A stretch of DNA of 64,000 bases, from positions 62,001 through 126,000 of the forward strand of contig NZ_BOLN01000004.1 of the NCBI RefSeq assembly GCF_016861655.1, written 5' to 3'. Origin of the DNA: Levilactobacillus lanxiensis. GTDB lineage: Bacteria > Bacillota > Bacilli > Lactobacillales > Lactobacillaceae. Position 1 is the stretch's first letter; every line of letters starts with the position of its first letter. This document shows, in pieces, positions 11,642 through 26,835 of the stretch. Both the position numbers and the translations under genes were made by a program. The notes beneath the pieces were generated by a model. That model was not told where the DNA came from. It ran no database searches and worked only from the letters and a program-made list of their open reading frames with translations.

Positions 11642-12347
11642 GTTTGAAAGCTATCACGAAGATGAGGTCTTGGCAGTTCCGACTAATCGCATTAATACAG
11701 CACCGGGGAGCCCAACCGAACGAATGATGCGGGTATTTGATAAGTTCTTATATGATGATATCCAGGATACTGAGAATATGAAGAAGGCCATTGCCCTGGA
11801 TAACATGGTTGGTGGTCAGCTGGATGACTATGGGGATGACTGGGGTCTGTTGCGACTTGGTGAGCCTGATGATATCTATCGTTTCTTGCTGAAATTGCGG
11901 ACAATCACACGGACTTCGCAAGGAACCTTCAACGAGTTAATCCGAATCATTTCGGCGACCTTTAGTATTGATGAACACGATTTCCAAGTGAAGAACGATT
12001 ACGTTATTCAACCGGATGGTTCGACGATTGGGAAGCCATTTCACGTATCAGTATATAATTTGCCGCTGGATGAAATTGAACACCCGGAAATTATCCAGTC
12101 TTTTATTACTGAGCTGCAGCAGGCTCTGGTGCTTGGAGTGACGTTGTCTAGTGTGTCCTTTGTAACTAGTCCTAGTGCAAACGTATATGTGGGCACGGCG
12201 CTAACTACGATGAACGAGGTTGAGTTGCCTAGTGATGTGGATACTGAAACTATGGAGCATACGATTACGAATACAAACTACATGCGTTCGTTTCAGCAGG
12301 TTACAACGAAGTATGAAATTGAGAGTGGGGAGGTAGACCATGGCTAA
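11628..12347 (+). CDS. baseplate protein (XkdU/YmfQ, DUF2313-like)
   Basis: This 239-residue protein is encoded between J and the fibre, the place of XkdU/gpI. The N-terminal 120 residues are helical (RMMRVFDKFLYDDIQDTENMKKAIALDNMVGGQLDDYGDDWGLLR...FLLKLRTITRTSQGTFNELIRIISATFSI). This family forms the adaptor that attaches tail fibres to the wedge. Overlaps at both ends indicate coupled translation. Confidence 0.75.
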   Translation: MVKNEFESYHEDEVLAVPTNRINTAPGSPTERMMRVFDKFLYDDIQDTENMKKAIALDNMVGGQLDDYGDDWGLLRLGEPDDIYRFLLKLRTITRTSQGTFNELIRIISATFSIDEHDFQVKNDYVIQPDGSTIGKPFHVSVYNLPLDEIEHPEIIQSFITELQQALVLGVTLSSVSFVTSPSANVYVGTALTTMNEVELPSDVDTETMEHTITNTNYMRSFQQVTTKYEIESGEVDHG

Positions 12348-14415
12348 ATGGAATCAACTGGTTATCACGGATGCGGGGTATCAGCTGTCGGCAAAAACAC
12401 TAGCTGGTACAAAGATTCAGTACACGCATGCTCAGACAACGGATAAGGATATGTCGGACCTAACTTCCGATGAACTGAAGTCAGTTACAAAGCTAGACAG
12501 TGTCGTTCAAGACCTGTCGGTTGGTATTATCACGGTCCAAGATGACCATACTGTTAATATCCCTGTTAAGGTAAGCAATCAAGATGTCACAGCTGATTAC
12601 TTACTATGTGGTCTGGCAATTTTTGCCAAGCCTGTAGATGGGGATGAAATCCTTTATGGGATTGCTACCGCTGTTAGTCCAGATTTGATGGTGGCTCAGA
12701 ATGGTTCTACGGTTGTTGGCACTAACTTTAAACTGAAGGTCCATGTAGGGTCAGCTGCCAATGTAAATATCGTTATTTCGCCGGATGGGTCCGTGTCTAA
12801 TGAGGAGCTTGAAGGAATTCTCAAAGACTATGTACTAACATCGGAATTGTCGAAAAAACTACCTGAAGGAATTGTTACTGAGGGTGGAAACAACGTCATG
12901 ACTGGCAGTAATGTTTTCAAAGCAGATCCAGTGGATGCTGATGGTAATGCTTATGTGACGGGGTCCGGGGCGGTTGCGGCAGCCGAAGGACATTTTGCAC
13001 AGGCAAGTAAGTCAGGTGGTGTGACAATTTCTGGCGTGGAGCTTGAAGTAGATGACGCCGGTAAGCTCAAGTATGGCGATGATCTGGTTTTAATGGCGAA
13101 CAAGCCACAGGCACCAGGGTTCACTGCAGCAATGGACTTCTCAGTCGGCCAGCCGGAGTGGACGGTCACGCTTCCCAAAATTGATGGTGGGGCCTCAATC
13201 GTGTCGTCCACCGTTCAGTACCGTAAGAGTGGTGACACCGATTGGACCAGCATTCAGTCAGCAGTATCCGTGCTGTCGGGCCATGTGACTGGACTCACGG
13301 GCAACTCAGAGTATGAATTCCGAGCCTTCGTATCTAACTATGCCGGTGATAGCCCGTACTCAAACACAGAAACCGTGAAGACGATGGACGACCGAATTTT
13401 CGGTGTATCTTGGGACATGAGTAGTGACCCTAAGCTAACTCGTACAGATGCCGCGGTCGGCTTGGTGGCGGGCATTAACGGTTCTCAAAACGATTTTGAC
13501 ACTGTGGGTCCTTGGGCTAAGATGGACAAGACCATTACAGACGATAAGGGCAACTCCTTTGTCCGGATTCCCAAGCTGTACATTAAGAAGACTCAGACTG
13601 ACAAACTGGCCACCTGGCAAGTTTCTCTGAGCAAAATTGACGATACTTGGTACCTGCCAAAGTGTTTCTGGGACTTCACTAATCAAAAAGAGTTGGATTA
13701 CGTGGACGTGGGTCGTTATGAAGGAACAATCAGTAGCGGCAAGCTAAAATCTAATAGTGGAGTAATGGCAACGGTTTCTCAACCGATTGGAACGTTCAGA
13801 ACGGATGCTAAAGCCAACGGGACTGGGTATCAGTTGCTAGATGTTCATGTGATTGATGTTTGGCAAGTGCTATTTGTCATTGAGTTTGCAACTATTAATT
13901 CTCAGAGTATCATGAACGGAATTTCTAGTGGGTCACAAGTGAAAAACGGCTCTGGAACCAATCATGCTGGTTCTTCTGGATTCCTGTCTCCAACGGGTGC
14001 AATGGATTATCGTGGGATTGAGAACCTGTATGGAAACATTTTTCAGTTTGCCGATGGCGTTAATATGGCCTCAAAAAAGCCATGGGTATGTGATGATTCG
14101 TCTAAGTATCAATCAGATCTATTTGCCGCCCCTTATACTAGTTTGAACTATTCGGTAGCAGAATCAGGGTACTCTGAACGAATGGGATTAGACACCAATC
14201 ATCCTTTTGCCCAGTTTGCGACGAAAACAGGGGACAGTGAGTCCACCTATTACTCAGATTACAACTATACCCCAAGTGGTAACTGTGTAGCTCTTTACGG
14301 CGGCAACTGGAACGGTTCCGGCTACGATGGCGTTTTCTGCTGGCATCTGTACGAGTCGTCTTCGTACTTGAATTCTGGCATCGGGTCGCGTCTCGTTAAA
14401 AAGGCTTTGGCTTAA
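12340..14415 (+). CDS. tail fibre/receptor-binding protein, target of the DGR
   Basis: This 691-residue protein has three parts. Residues 1-150 are an N-terminal baseplate-attachment region of the kind that starts many fibres (MAKWNQLVITDAGYQLSAKTLAG). Residues about 257-350 form a fibronectin type III-like domain (SSTVQYRKSGDTDWTSI...VTGLTGNSEYEFRAFVSNYAGDSPYS). Residues about 350-691 form a C-terminal domain with the C-type-lectin / formylglycine-enzyme-like look of DGR targets, ending GGNWNGSG...GIGSRLVKKALA. VR covers residues 654-685. Residues 659, 662, 667, 671, 676 and 680 differ from the TR-encoded version (Asn, Asn, Tyr, Asn, Asn, Asp). The tip probably binds the host surface. Confidence 0.9.
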   Translation: MAKWNQLVITDAGYQLSAKTLAGTKIQYTHAQTTDKDMSDLTSDELKSVTKLDSVVQDLSVGIITVQDDHTVNIPVKVSNQDVTADYLLCGLAIFAKPVDGDEILYGIATAVSPDLMVAQNGSTVVGTNFKLKVHVGSAANVNIVISPDGSVSNEELEGILKDYVLTSELSKKLPEGIVTEGGNNVMTGSNVFKADPVDADGNAYVTGSGAVAAAEGHFAQASKSGGVTISGVELEVDDAGKLKYGDDLVLMANKPQAPGFTAAMDFSVGQPEWTVTLPKIDGGASIVSSTVQYRKSGDTDWTSIQSAVSVLSGHVTGLTGNSEYEFRAFVSNYAGDSPYSNTETVKTMDDRIFGVSWDMSSDPKLTRTDAAVGLVAGINGSQNDFDTVGPWAKMDKTITDDKGNSFVRIPKLYIKKTQTDKLATWQVSLSKIDDTWYLPKCFWDFTNQKELDYVDVGRYEGTISSGKLKSNSGVMATVSQPIGTFRTDAKANGTGYQLLDVHVIDVWQVLFVIEFATINSQSIMNGISSGSQVKNGSGTNHAGSSGFLSPTGAMDYRGIENLYGNIFQFADGVNMASKKPWVCDDSSKYQSDLFAAPYTSLNYSVAESGYSERMGLDTNHPFAQFATKTGDSESTYYSDYNYTPSGNCVALYGGNWNGSGYDGVFCWHLYESSSYLNSGIGSRLVKKALA
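14300..14394 (+). repeat. DGR variable repeat (VR)
   Basis: This 95-bp segment at the 3' end of the fibre gene matches TR (14465-14559) without gaps, offset by exactly 165 bases. Seven positions differ: 14314, 14315, 14323, 14339, 14350, 14365 and 14378. All seven are A in TR; they read G, G, T, G, T, T, G here. The other 88 positions are identical. The final 14 bases (14381-14394, no adenine) would be the initiation-of-mutagenic-homing (IMH) segment; just beyond it VR has G where TR has C. Confidence 0.95.
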
Positions 14416-14421
14416 GGAGGA

Positions 14422-14441
14422 CCGGGGGAGTTCTCCCCCGG
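14422..14441 (+). promoter_or_regulatory. GC-rich hairpin/cruciform downstream of VR
   Basis: CCGGGGGAG at 14422-14430 is a perfect inverted repeat of CTCCCCCGG at 14433-14441 (9 bp around TT, or 8 bp around a GTTC loop). It starts 27 bases after VR and just after the fibre stop codon. There is no T-run, so it is not a typical terminator. A hairpin/cruciform downstream of the IMH is required for efficient target recognition in the Bordetella phage BPP-1 DGR, and this one fits that role. Confidence 0.75.
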
Positions 14442-14464
14442 GAACTTTTGGGGATTTGTGGTGC

Positions 14465-14559
14465 GCGGCAACTGGAACAATTCCGGCAACGATGGCGTTT
14501 TCTACTGGCATCTGAACGAGTCGTCTTCGAACTTGAATTCTGACATCGGGTCGCGTCTC
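14465..14559 (+). repeat. DGR template repeat (TR)
   Basis: This noncoding 95-bp copy of VR lies between the fibre stop and the reverse transcriptase. Read in the fibre frame it is rich in AAY codons (starting at 14470, 14476, 14479, 14488, 14515, 14530, 14536), the codon choice typical of DGR templates because AAY can mutate to many amino acids. It holds 20 adenines, 7 of which are changed in VR. The template transcript would run through TR and the following 157-base spacer up to the reverse transcriptase gene. Confidence 0.95.
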
Positions 14560-14716
14560 CTTATTTGATGAATGAAATTGCACTGCATCTTCCCTGCCAC
14601 TTGGCAAAAATTAGGCTGCTCAAAGCAGGAGCTAGTAGGATATCTCGAAAGTTCTTGAAGCTAATAAGGAAAACAAATTGCATAAATGCACATTTTGAAA
14701 AGAAAGGAGGAGCCTA
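14560..14716 (+). ncRNA. DGR TR-RT spacer, likely part of the template RNA
   Basis: This 157-base noncoding stretch between TR and the reverse transcriptase contains small hairpins (CTGCT...AGCAG near 14613-14625 and TGCATAAATGCA near 14683) and ends in AAGGAGG before the RT start. In BPP-1 the equivalent spacer is part of the template RNA and is needed for cDNA priming. That role is inferred here from position and length. Confidence 0.5.
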
Positions 14717-15781
14717 ATGAAGCGATATGGAAACTTGTTCGATAAAATTGTGAGTTCAGACAATCTGGGGCTTGCAATTGAAGAGGCCTCTAAGGGAAAA
14801 CGCACCCGTAAGGGTGTTTCCCGTGTTCTGGATAACAAAGATTTCTACGTCATGCAGTTGCATGACATGCTAGTAGACCATGAGTACGTGCCTAACCATG
14901 TGGTTCGTCGTGTGATTCGGGATAAGATTAAAACACGAACAATTGCTAAGCCGCAGTTCTACCCGGACCAAGTTATTCAGTGGGCCGCCATGCTAGTACT
15001 GCAGCCAATCTTCTTGAAAGGCATGTATGAGTACAGTGTGGGGTCAATCCCACATCGCGGTACTTCAATGGGACAAAAGGCAGTTAAAAAGTGGCTGCAA
15101 AATGACCCCAAGAACACTAAGTATTGTCTAAAGATGGATGTGCATAAATTTTACCCATCCATCAACACGGCAATTCTCAAGTCCAAGTTCCGACGAAAAA
15201 TTAAGGACCGGGATACCCTCTGGCTACTTGATACTTTGGTGGACCAGTTTGAACAGGGGCTGCCAATCGGTTTTTACTCTTCCCAGTGGTTTGCCAACTT
15301 TTTCTTGCAAGACTTAGACCATTACATCAAGGATGATTTGCAAATTCCGTACCTTGTACGGAATATCGATGATCTAGTGCTACTGGGGCCGAACAAAAAG
15401 AAGCTACACAAGGCAGAGCAAGCTATTTCCAGCTACCTGGCTGATGAATTTCTGGAGGTTAAGCCCAACTGGCAAGTCTTCAAGGTCAACTCACGGCCTA
15501 TCGACTTTTTAGGAATGCGCCTGTACCGGGGCCACACGACTTTGCGTCGCCGAAACGCTTTAAAAATTAAACGCCGGATGGCAAAGATTTCCAAAAAACC
15601 TGGACTAAATCGATTCGATGCGGCAAGTGTCATCGCTTACTGGGGCTGGCTTAAGCACTCAGATAGCTATGGATTTTACATGAAGTATATGAAGCCTGCT
15701 TGTACCATTAAGCGGGCAAAGGAGGTAATGTCTAATGGCAGCAAACGACGAGTACGCTACACTGACCGGACCCATTCCTGA
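14717..15781 (+). CDS. DGR reverse transcriptase
   Basis: This 354-residue enzyme is preceded by a strong AAGGAGG. Motifs in order: the KTRTIAKP region (72-79) and FYPDQVIQWA (81-90); motif A, LKMDVHKFYPSI with Asp141; motif 4, GLPIGFYSSQWFANFFLQDLD (181-201), whose IGxxxSQ signature marks DGR enzymes rather than group II intron RTs; the catalytic pair Asp218-Asp219 in RNIDDLVLLG; and a later PIDFLGMRLY segment. No endonuclease or maturase domain is visible, as usual for DGRs. It would copy TR RNA into adenine-mutated cDNA. Residue 216 is Asn (codon AAT at 15362) where YxDD is usual. The last 47 bases overlap the next gene. Confidence 0.95.
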   Translation: MKRYGNLFDKIVSSDNLGLAIEEASKGKRTRKGVSRVLDNKDFYVMQLHDMLVDHEYVPNHVVRRVIRDKIKTRTIAKPQFYPDQVIQWAAMLVLQPIFLKGMYEYSVGSIPHRGTSMGQKAVKKWLQNDPKNTKYCLKMDVHKFYPSINTAILKSKFRRKIKDRDTLWLLDTLVDQFEQGLPIGFYSSQWFANFFLQDLDHYIKDDLQIPYLVRNIDDLVLLGPNKKKLHKAEQAISSYLADEFLEVKPNWQVFKVNSRPIDFLGMRLYRGHTTLRRRNALKIKRRMAKISKKPGLNRFDAASVIAYWGWLKHSDSYGFYMKYMKPACTIKRAKEVMSNGSKRRVRYTDRTHS

Positions 15782-16112
15782 TGGATTTGCGGTGTATCAG
15801 ATGCCAGGCGTACAGCTTGGTGATCACACGTTCTTTGGGTGGAAAATGGTGAAGCAAAAGTCCGAATCCTATACGGATGATGACGGGAAAGAGCAGCATC
15901 GGAGCGTTGACGACGAGACCACACCTGCTGTATACGATGGAACAACGCAGCTACTTCAAGATAATGCAGAAAAGGCCAAAGAGATTGCTAGTCTAAAGGC
16001 AGCCAACGAACTTACTCAGCAGGGCCTGATGGAAGCTGTTGACTACTTGTCAGCACAACTAGTACAGACGAGCACCACAACAACTGATTCTTCAACCGGG
16101 GAGGCGAAGTAA
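15735..16112 (+). CDS. phage tail accessory protein (XkdW position)
   Basis: This 125-residue protein starts at ATG 15735 after AAAGGAGG, inside the 3' end of the RT gene. Residues 1-70 look like a small beta domain (IPDGFAVYQMPGVQLGDHTFFGWKMVKQKSESYTDDDGKEQ); residues 75-110 form a helix or short coiled coil (QLLQDNAEKAKEIASLKAANELTQQGLMEAVDYLSAQLV); the C-terminus is Thr/Ser-rich. It occupies the XkdW place before the XkdX peptides. It does not resemble the four-helix, basic Avd protein of DGRs. Exact function unknown. Confidence 0.55.
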   Translation: MAANDEYATLTGPIPDGFAVYQMPGVQLGDHTFFGWKMVKQKSESYTDDDGKEQHRSVDDETTPAVYDGTTQLLQDNAEKAKEIASLKAANELTQQGLMEAVDYLSAQLVQTSTTTTDSSTGEAK

Positions 16113-18888: not shown

Positions 18889-19035
18889 GTATAATATTCA
18901 GTATATTTTGAATATTGTTTCTTCTATCTTATATGTATTCCTCGCACGGATTTATTTTCTAACCATTTTTCTAACCACTTAGGGAATTGGCTTGTTAAAT
19001 AGTGCCAACTTTGTTATGCTTGAAGTCGTTGAAAT

Positions 19036-19120
19036 GCGGCCATGGCGGAATTGGCAGACGCGCAAGATTAAGGATCTTGTCCGGGTAATCCGGGTGGAAG
19101 TTCGAATCTTCTTGGCCGCA
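19036..19120 (+). tRNA. tRNA-Leu, anticodon AAG
   Basis: A full cloverleaf folds: acceptor GCGGCCA/TGGCCGC, anticodon stem CAAGA/TCTTG around TTAAGGA (anticodon AAG at 19070-19072), a long variable arm (CCGG/CCGG) and T-arm GGAAG TTCGAAT CTTCT, with no encoded CCA. The long variable arm and the AAG anticodon identify leucine (CUU). A34 in tRNA-Leu is uncommon in bacteria, where GAG is usual. It lies about 150 bases right of the prophage terminator, so it may mark the attachment site. Confidence 0.93.
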
Positions 19121-19137
19121 TCAGAGGTTTACAGAAA

Positions 19138-24904: not shown

Positions 24905-26035
24905 TTATCCCACGGTCACTTGATCACGACCGTTGCGTTTAGAGTAGTACAAGCTCTGATCCGCTCGTCGGTAAACGTCCAACTGTTCCTCGTCGGCCGT
25001 TTGAAGCTGGGTCAGGCCAACGGAAATGCTGACGCTTATTTGCTGGCCGCCGTGCGAGAAGATAGCCGACCGGACACTCTCGGCAATATCGTCGACGTGT
25101 TCCCGGGCCTGATCCGTTGTGTAATTTTTAAAGAGAATCGTGAATTCCTCGCCACCGGTTCGGTAGAGGACGAGGTTGGGGTCGACGCGCCGGAGCTGAT
25201 CACTAATCAGGGTGGCCGTGTGTCCCAACACGTAGTCACCCGCCAAATGGCCATAGGTGTCGTTGACGTGCTTGAAGTGGTCGATATCGAACAGCATCAG
25301 TGTCAGCGGCTTGTGGGTGACCTTACTGTTGTCGAAGGCCGCGCTGAAGTCATTTTTAAAGGCAAAGTAGTTCTTTACGTGGGTGAGGTCATCGTAGTTC
25401 GTGGTATAGGTCAGCTGTGCCAGGGTGGCCGCGCCGCTCATCAACGAATCCACGTAAATGTACATGATGGTGAGCAGGAAGAAACTGAAAATGAGCTCCC
25501 ACATCATGATGGAAGAGGAGAGGCCAAAGCGTTGGCCGACCACGCCCCAGAGGATTGCGGAGAGGAGCAACGAGGCGACAGTGTATTCAATGTAGTCGAG
25601 CCACATGTGGTGCCGTCGACTGCGAACGAACTTCATCACGTAGAAGTAGGCGATGAAGACCACCGCGAAGACCCAGGCGAGTCCCAGTCCCAGCGTTTGG
25701 TTGACGACCATGAACAGCAGGATAGCGAGAGCCAACTGCCAGAACTTAATTTCCAACATCAGAAAGTAACTGACAAAGACAATCGCGAAGATTTGAAAAT
25801 TGGTGAAGGCCCAGCTATAGGGGGTGTGGTTGACGGCGAGTTGCACGCCAACGTTGAGCACGACCATATAGACGAGACCGACGTCGGTGCGGACCTTGTC
25901 CTCATTGGGGTGTTTGCCACGGGTTTTAAACCACCGAATAATCCGGTTGGTGAGGTACCAGTATAGCGTCAACACGCCCAGCAGGAAGAACAGACTCGTA
26001 ATTGCCGGGGTCACAAACCAGTGAGACCAAGTCAT
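24905..26035 (-). CDS. membrane diguanylate cyclase (GGDEF)
   Basis: This 376-residue protein has about six to seven N-terminal membrane helices (residues 8-215), then a GGDEF domain (about 220-375) containing FDIDHFKHVNDTYGH and the active loop YRTGGEEFTI. It makes cyclic di-GMP from two GTP. The RxxD inhibitory site is not in its usual position five residues before GGEEF, so product inhibition may be weak. A helical membrane sensor replaces any PAS or Cache domain. It lies beside an EAL gene on the same strand, suggesting a local c-di-GMP switch. Confidence 0.9.
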   Translation of the reverse strand: MTWSHWFVTPAITSLFFLLGVLTLYWYLTNRIIRWFKTRGKHPNEDKVRTDVGLVYMVVLNVGVQLAVNHTPYSWAFTNFQIFAIVFVSYFLMLEIKFWQLALAILLFMVVNQTLGLGLAWVFAVVFIAYFYVMKFVRSRRHHMWLDYIEYTVASLLLSAILWGVVGQRFGLSSSIMMWELIFSFFLLTIMYIYVDSLMSGAATLAQLTYTTNYDDLTHVKNYFAFKNDFSAAFDNSKVTHKPLTLMLFDIDHFKHVNDTYGHLAGDYVLGHTATLISDQLRRVDPNLVLYRTGGEEFTILFKNYTTDQAREHVDDIAESVRSAIFSHGGQQISVSISVGLTQLQTADEEQLDVYRRADQSLYYSKRNGRDQVTVG

Positions 26036-26187: not shown

Positions 26188-26835
26188 TTAAACTAAGCTA
26201 GGTTTACCGTACAAGTAACCCTGGTGCAGGGTGATACCGAATTGCTTGGCCAACGCTTGGTCGTCCGCATCTTCGACCCCTTCAAGGATCAACCGTAACC
26301 GGTATTCCCGAGAAATTTGGGCCCAGAAGGCGAGGCTGGCGGGAATCAAGTCGGCTTCCCCGCTCATCCGCAGGTTTTGCATGGCAAACTTGATTTCGTC
26401 CACGTAAGGCAACAGGTCGCGAATATTTTGGTACGTGTTGGACCCCGTGCCCACATCATCTAAGACCAAACCAATACCATATTGATGAACAGCCAAACTG
26501 AACTGCTTCATTTCCTCGAGGGTCGGGGCTTCGGTTAACTCAATGGTCAATGCGGCTGGGGCAATGCGTTTCTTTAAAGCAATCACCGTCCCCAACGTGA
26601 GGGGATTGCGAAGCTGTTGATTATTGAGGTTAAAAGCGAGTACCTGATTGTTAACGGCTGTGTGTAACGAAGAAGCCGTGTCCTCAAGGAGCTTAGCCTG
26701 ATCGGCAACAGAGATGTCCGTAAAATGATGCGGCAAGACCCAAGCGTCCTCTTCCTGCTTACGTAACAAGACTTCATAGCCGAAGACTCGGTGGTCATCT
26801 TGATTGATCTGTGGTTGTACAAAGAAACGATACAT
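26188..26835 (-). CDS. compact EAL-domain phosphodiesterase
   Basis: This 215-residue protein is almost only an EAL domain. Catalytic positions appear kept: E21-V-L23 in FGYEVLLR for EAL, Asn69 in AFNLNN, E99/E102 in IELTE, D126-D127 in DDVGTG, K149 in DEIKF, E185 in EGVE and Q205 in HQGYLYGKP. It should cleave c-di-GMP to pGpG, though the EVL and DDVGTG variants could lower activity. It is a stand-alone domain with no sensor. The start follows AGGAGTGG. Confidence 0.85.
   Translation of the reverse strand: MYRFFVQPQINQDDHRVFGYEVLLRKQEEDAWVLPHHFTDISVADQAKLLEDTASSLHTAVNNQVLAFNLNNQQLRNPLTLGTVIALKKRIAPAALTIELTEAPTLEEMKQFSLAVHQYGIGLVLDDVGTGSNTYQNIRDLLPYVDEIKFAMQNLRMSGEADLIPASLAFWAQISREYRLRLILEGVEDADDQALAKQFGITLHQGYLYGKPSLV

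What the first reader, a model, noticed from the sequence alone, without database searches (positions are those of the whole stretch)
14300..15781. Compact diversity-generating retroelement in a prophage tail operon
Seen: a 95-bp VR in the fibre gene, a GC hairpin, a noncoding 95-bp TR and a reverse transcriptase with the IGxxxSQ motif, all in 1.5 kb. DGRs of this order are known from Bordetella phage BPP-1, where they diversify the receptor-binding Mtd protein. Inference: this prophage of a lactic acid bacterium can rewrite its host-binding tip. Whether this copy is already described I cannot tell.
Basis: partly seen in the sequence, partly recalled or inferred. Interest (0 to 1): 0.95.

Follow-up and report, generated by a model that had tools for sequence, protein, structure and literature searches.

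The report
Phage tail mutator, altered catalytic motif
A virus integrated in a Levilactobacillus chromosome carries a compact diversity-generating retroelement that is predicted to rewrite the tip of its tail fibre, and its reverse transcriptase has asparagine where the other relatives tabulated here have the catalytic-motif tyrosine, yet comparison with near kin shows adenine-targeted changes that this altered enzyme likely made.

The parts
12340..14415 (+). tail-fibre (target) gene, 691 aa, VR at its 3' end
   Evidence: ORF; PHROG tail and tail-fibre families
13507..14412 (+). C-terminal C-type-lectin (FGE-subtype) tip domain, residues 390-691
14300..14398 (+). variable repeat (VR), 99 nt
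14383..14395 (+). IMH-like end of VR: GGGTCGCGTCTC then G (TR has C at 14560)
   Evidence: the base after the shared 12-mer is C in TR and G or A in VR in 5 of 5 N-type pairs
14422..14441 (+). GC hairpin, 8-bp stem, 4-nt loop, 23 nt after VR
14465..14563 (+). template repeat (TR), 99 nt, non-coding
14595..14671 (+). RT-18 RNA (Rfam RF03021), structured-RNA family member between TR and RT
   Evidence: 66.6 bits, gathering 41.3; found in 19 of 19 relatives given
14717..15781 (+). DGR reverse transcriptase, 354 aa, IGFYSSQ and NIDD (N216)
15735..16112 (+). next gene (125 aa, overlaps the RT end), no Pfam, PHROG or NCBIfam hit, so no match to an Avd model
19033..19121 (+). right att repeat, 89 bp, covering 87 of the 88 bases reported for tRNA-Leu (19035-19122); identical copy at G000:C4:30104-30192 beside the integrase gene

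Best explanation
This is a diversity-generating retroelement in a prophage tail operon: its reverse transcriptase likely copies the template-repeat RNA with errors at adenines, and the copy would replace the variable repeat that encodes the predicted lectin-fold tip of the tail fibre. Shown by sequence and comparison: the TR/VR pair with adenine-biased mismatches, the hairpin, the RT-18 RNA match between TR and RT, the DGR-type RT, and adenine-targeted VR differences between relatives with identical TRs. Predicted by model: the lectin fold. Inferred: that the RT makes the cDNA from an RNA running through TR and RT-18, that homing starts at the IMH-like end beside the hairpin, and that the tip binds the host surface. 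The RT belongs to a clade whose catalytic YxDD became NxDD; since VRs of that clade differ at adenines between near kin, NxDD likely still catalyses mutagenic copying. Because no Avd is recognisable, the RT and its RNA probably work without an Avd of the known family.
For: 7 of 8 TR/VR mismatches at TR A. Window against L139 (G406; identical TR): VR A-sites differ 10/21, VR non-A 1/78, TR 0/99, rest of the 1194-nt block 9/996, Fisher 3.8e-14; L005 against L140 (identical TR): 16/26, 0/77, 0/103, 8/620, 1.8e-21. Where N-type TRs differ at non-A sites, each VR follows its own TR (15/15, 20/20, 6/6; 14/15 and 19/20 for L083). RT is DGR type. The 11 N-type rows given to the tree (of 12; P0001 was not given) are one side of a branch with support 100/99. 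dN/dS 0.019-0.074 in the 14 of 15 N-type pairs that gave a value. RT-18 in 19 of 19 relatives given; BPP-1 has the Phage_DGR RNA between its TR and RT. Avd models ring in 2 of 2 controls and above cut-off in 0 of 18 others. Target fold. Complete-looking prophage.
Against: No expression, induction or population sequencing. N216 sits in a motif whose tyrosine is otherwise kept, so reduced activity is possible; the mutated share of TR adenines is lower in the N-type pairs (54/118) than in sister-side Y-type pairs (94/156), p 0.02. The RT-18 segment alone does not fold better than shuffles (z -0.12). No sigma-70-like promoter was found in 14100-14900. Sub-cut-off Avd matches exist (PF22296: 4 genomes, best 19.3 bits of 40, this genome 14.8 bits about 54 kb beyond the RT on the same contig; NF033474: 3 genomes, best 17.2 of 80, none in this genome), so an unrecognised Avd cannot be excluded.
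Confidence: 0.92

Rival explanations
1. A frozen DGR: the change to NIDD inactivated the RT, and VR differences are left over from an older Y-type ancestor.
For: The tyrosine is otherwise kept: 144 Y, 12 N of 156 rows; PMC3521204 names only F as a replacement, in 14% of its DGR RTs (section 10). The mutated share of adenines is somewhat lower than in sister-side elements.
Against: dN/dS 0.02-0.07 with many synonymous sites near saturation. Two identical-TR pairs of N-type elements with VR differences at TR adenines inside blocks whose other sites are about 99% identical. VRs track their own diverged TRs.
Confidence: 0.05
2. VR differences come from recombination among fibre alleles, not from copying of TR.
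For: The locus is mosaic: window and L139 share a block of 97-100% identity (93% in the bin with VR) inside flanks of 80-91% that fall to about 50%.
Against: Inside that block the differences concentrate on VR sites opposite TR adenines, not on neighbouring sites. A whole-genome search with TR found only TR and this VR, so no other donor was seen in this genome.
Confidence: 0.02
3. The DGR needs an Avd that the models do not recognise, or one supplied from elsewhere.
For: Inactivating avd cuts BPP-1 repair in E. coli to about 1e-9 (PMC12875486, section 6). The paper PMC10053308 (passages) says that most known DGRs encode Avd. Weak sub-cut-off matches exist.
Against: PF22296 and NF033474 rang in BPP-1 and the P. 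aestuarii plasmid but over cut-off in none of 18 others, including 11 cellular genomes. The TR-RT spacer of 153 nt holds RT-18. The gene after RT matches no family.
Confidence: 0.2
4. The RT is a retron, group II intron or defence RT beside a chance repeat.
For: Other RT models match: group_II_RT_mat 79 bits against cut-off 300, retron St85 57 against 235; PADLOC generic RT 95.6 bits and DRT models (no cut-offs there).
Against: Best sequence and fold match is BPP-1 bRT; IGxxxSQ; cognate TR/VR.
Confidence: 0.01

Closest known systems
Lactobacillus phage LBR48 (GU967410), putative reverse transcriptase
   Same: RT 89.5% identical over 354 aa, also NIDD; RT-18 RNA; baseplate genes at one end of its linear record, RT, holin and lysozyme at the other
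   Different: Its record lacks the VR and the 5' hairpin arm; the record calls the gene RT and marks no DGR in the stretches seen
Bordetella phage BPP-1 DGR (mtd-avd-TR-brt)
   Different: BPP-1 has Avd, YMDD and Phage_DGR RF03022 RNA; here no recognisable Avd, NIDD, RT-18
Thermus aquaticus TaqVP (5vf4), DGR variable protein
   Different: 17% identity; TaqVP is a single-domain protein, here the tip of a 691-aa fibre; the T. aquaticus DGR contains avd (PMC6328139 passages)
Y-type DGRs of Lactobacillaceae (L055-L058, L087, L089, L092) and Apilactobacillus plasmid (L125)
   Same: Sister RT group in the tree (L089 not given to it); VR, hairpin, TR, RT-18 and RT in the seven loci without L125
   Different: YxDD kept; RT 50-54% identical to the window in L055-L058 and L125 (the others not measured against the window); A-to-C present in 7 of 7 scored VRs

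Membership tests
Diversity-generating retroelement (DGR) | TR/VR pair with mismatches concentrated at TR adenines, VR in a protein gene | tested here: met
   7 of 8 mismatches
Diversity-generating retroelement (DGR) | RT of the DGR clade with (I/V/L)GxxxSQ | tested here: met
   IGFYSSQ; bRT best match; motif as characteristic from PMC3521204 (passages; section 10)
Diversity-generating retroelement (DGR) | two catalytic aspartates | tested here: met
   D218 D219, kept in 12 of 12 N-type rows and 143 of 143 others besides BPP-1
Diversity-generating retroelement (DGR) | homing signals: IMH-like 3' end and hairpin after VR | tested here: met
   present by sequence; function not tested
Diversity-generating retroelement (DGR) | lectin-fold variable protein (usual, not required) | tested here: met
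   predicted model, weak profile hit
Diversity-generating retroelement (DGR) | mutagenic homing at adenines in vivo | not testable with these tools
   comparative proxy only
BPP-1-type RT-Avd DGR (subset) | Avd protein | tested here: not met
   none over cut-off; both controls rang; weak matches below cut-off
BPP-1-type RT-Avd DGR (subset) | tyrosine of YxDD | tested here: not met
   N216 aligned with bRT Y213
BPP-1-type RT-Avd DGR (subset) | Phage_DGR RNA (RF03022) | tested here: not met
   RT-18 instead; RF03022 reached its cut-off in BPP-1 only
Retron / group II intron RT | score above the family cut-off | tested here: not met
   far below NCBIfam cut-offs

The most novel reading that the evidence does not exclude
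In Levilactobacillus phages the DGR polymerase was re-tuned: the YxDD tyrosine became asparagine, together with a threonine-to-serine change inside the SQ motif, giving an Avd-free mutator that turns template adenines into G or T but not C. That would be a natural experiment on what sets the error spectrum of a mutagenic reverse transcriptase.
Probability: 0.2. Interest if true: 0.75.

Novelty: new variant of a known kind. Interest (0 to 1): 0.5.

Why it matters
DGRs are natural targeted mutators, and what causes their adenine errors is still being worked out. A clade whose VRs keep differing at adenines while its RT lacks the catalytic-motif tyrosine, with no Avd recognisable, would show, if confirmed, that neither is indispensable in nature. 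It would offer a two-part system (one protein, one RNA) for biochemistry. It also ties Rfam's RT-18 RNA to DGRs by place, and points to tail-tip diversification in phages of food lactobacilli.

Tried and rejected
Avd by PF05635: 0 of 1 and 0 of 20, but the BPP-1 record did not ring either, so that test was dropped; PF22296 and NF033474 were used instead. A-to-C in AC context alone: N-type 0/23 against sister-side plus L020 3/30, p 0.25; and 25 of 49 Y-type loci also lack A-to-C there, so the context-specific claim was dropped and only the all-context contrast kept. Spectrum as proof that NIDD causes it: rejected, because Y-type lineages differ too (11 scored loci among L029-L041 sum to 6 G, 74 T, 67 C; my sum rows) and four Y-type loci have no A-to-C. 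The regex mis-read two proteins (P0001, P0003); redone by alignment. DNA pattern for the N motif: viral contigs gave 4 hits, 3 N-type and L119, in which the script found no RT motif. Folding of RT-18 alone gave no excess. Promoter scan: none. In one search, 28 loci without a detectable pair (among them copies of LBR48 and weak, intron-like RT hits) and 5 without the RT motif were left out, as were four loci that are the window itself; its pair finder penalises TR-adenine mismatches less and takes the downstream copy as TR; a few Y-type pairs are poor (L007 with 11 non-A mismatches, L104 with 5). The unweighted scan found the same window pair. The Y-type plasmid locus L125 was not scored. Literature: among the results listed by the searches I saw no paper on a DGR in L. 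brevis phages or on an NxDD RT; the lists are capped, the library lacks most subscription journals, and the paper that I recall as the source of RT-18 is not held.
Full report
Observation. The window holds a 99-nt direct repeat: VR 14300-14398 at the 3' end of a 691-aa tail-fibre ORF, and TR 14465-14563 in DNA without a + strand ORF of 80 aa or more. They differ at 8 sites, 7 of them adenine in TR; the eighth (C in TR, G in VR) follows the shared GGGTCGCGTCTC and separates the two copies as IMH* and IMH do in BPP-1 (naming from PMC6642488 passages, and recalled). A hairpin with an 8-bp stem lies at 14422-14441. The RT ORF 14717-15781 carries IGFYSSQ. The genome gave one match to this RT, and TR matched only itself and this VR.

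Setting. The window is part of contig C4 of a 3.03-Mb genome; genomes of the same genus include those in which the loci of L. brevis CD0817 and L. tangyuanensis 137-3 lie (matched by contig position), so the host is a Levilactobacillus. An exact 89-bp repeat lies at C4:30104-30192 and window 19033-19121; the right copy covers 87 of the 88 bases reported for a tRNA-Leu gene. Between the copies are an integrase (Pfam Phage_integrase), terminase, capsid E, minor tail protein, baseplate J and endolysin. So the prophage is about 51 kb and looks complete. The DGR lies between the fibre gene and the next small gene of the tail region.

Is the N-type element active? Three lines say that it has been. 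First, NG86 dN/dS among six N-type RT genes is 0.019-0.074 in 14 of 15 pairs (one saturated; many dS values are near saturation and the locus is mosaic, so the ratios are rough). Second, where N-type TRs differ from each other at non-adenine sites, each VR follows its own TR, with one exception site in L083. Third, two pairs of N-type elements have identical TRs inside near-identical blocks. In the window against L139 (1194 nt), VR sites opposite TR adenines differ at 10 of 21 and all other sites at 10 of 1173 (3.8e-14), one of these ten being a non-A site in VR. In L005 against L140 (826 nt), 16 of 26 against 8 of 800 (1.8e-21). The blocks were extended while 50-nt windows kept at least 46 matches.

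RNA. Between TR and RT lies an Rfam RT-18 match (66.6 bits, cut-off 41.3). RT-18 was found in 19 of 19 relatives given, and BPP-1 has Phage_DGR RF03022 between its TR and RT. RT-18 therefore looks like the counterpart of the BPP-1 spacer RNA in this branch. That is inference from place and constancy; the segment alone folds no better than shuffles.

Avd. PF22296 and NF033474 ring in BPP-1 and in the P. aestuarii plasmid, and above cut-off in none of the other 18 records, which include this genome and 10 other cellular genomes. Below cut-off there are weak matches: four genomes with PF22296 (best 19.3 bits of 40; this genome 14.8 bits at C4:132278, about 54 kb beyond the RT), three with NF033474 (best 17.2 of 80; none in this genome). 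Inactivating avd cuts BPP-1 repair in E. coli to about 1e-9 (PMC12875486, section 6).

Error spectrum. Over 54 distinct VR/TR pairs (28 loci without a detectable pair and 5 without the RT motif left out), N-type elements (5) changed 54 of 118 adenines to 35 G, 19 T, 0 C; Y-type (49) to 273 G, 226 T, 168 C. Against seven sister-side Y-type elements (49 G, 35 T, 10 C; 7 of 7 with at least one C) Fisher p is 0.014, and the context-matched expectation is 6.1 C. PMC12875486 (passages) reports that bRT puts in G opposite A mainly before C. Within the AC context alone the N-type deficit is not significant against the sister-side elements plus L020 (p 0.25). This is one lineage contrast; the pair members share some substitutions (3 of 5 and 3 of 4 doubly changed sites have the same base); selection on the protein is uncontrolled; and one Y-type group (11 scored loci among L029-L041) has its own skew, with almost no A-to-G. 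The link to N216 is a lead, not a result.

Mosaic exchange. The fibre tip, VR and TR seem to travel together: 97-100% identity over about 1.2 kb between window and L139, with 93% in the bin that holds VR, inside flanks of 80-91% that fall to about 50%. RT similarity and TR similarity are uncoupled: L006 and L045 RTs have dS 0.10 yet different TRs, while L006 and LBR48 share a TR with RT dS 1.46.

Literature seen. Passages: PMC8144416, PMC12875486 (section 6), PMC3521204 (section 10), PMC6642488, PMC3240598, PMC6805780 and PMC6563214 ('reverse transcriptase' occurs 0 times in either main text), PMC10053308, PMC8867640, PMC6328139. All other papers: search listings only.

Verdict. A genuine DGR, a new variant of a known kind: N-type catalytic motif, no recognisable Avd, RT-18 RNA, and comparative evidence of adenine-targeted change since near kin parted.

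Noticed in passing
L042 (GU967410) about 515-560: The deposited LBR48 genome lacks the VR and one hairpin arm (about 170 nt), with Ns near by: a cloning or assembly deletion, or a real loss.
   Followed up: partly
L029-L034, L036-L039, L041 (11 scored viral contigs): Their VRs show almost no A-to-G: 6 G, 74 T, 67 C summed. A lineage-specific DGR spectrum with Y-type RTs; some loci may be near-copies, and the L031 pair is doubtful.
   Followed up: partly
window 13680-14873 and L139: Fibre tip, VR and TR look like one exchange module between phages of different Levilactobacillus species, uncoupled from the RT.
   Followed up: partly
L125 (NZ_CP093363.1, Apilactobacillus apisilvae, 42.7 kb): A plasmid record with baseplate, fibre and lysozyme genes, ParA and a Y-type DGR RT: possibly a phage-plasmid with a DGR.
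   Followed up: no
G114:C1:2865685-2866785 (L059, L080): RT matched in two pieces with overlapping query ranges: an insertion or partial duplication inside the RT.
   Followed up: no
window 24905-26035 and 26188-26835 (-): Neighbouring chromosomal ORFs look like GGDEF and EAL proteins (read by eye, no family search).
   Followed up: no
window 14436-14453: A terminator-like site overlaps the GC hairpin between VR and TR; it might limit read-through into TR.
   Followed up: no
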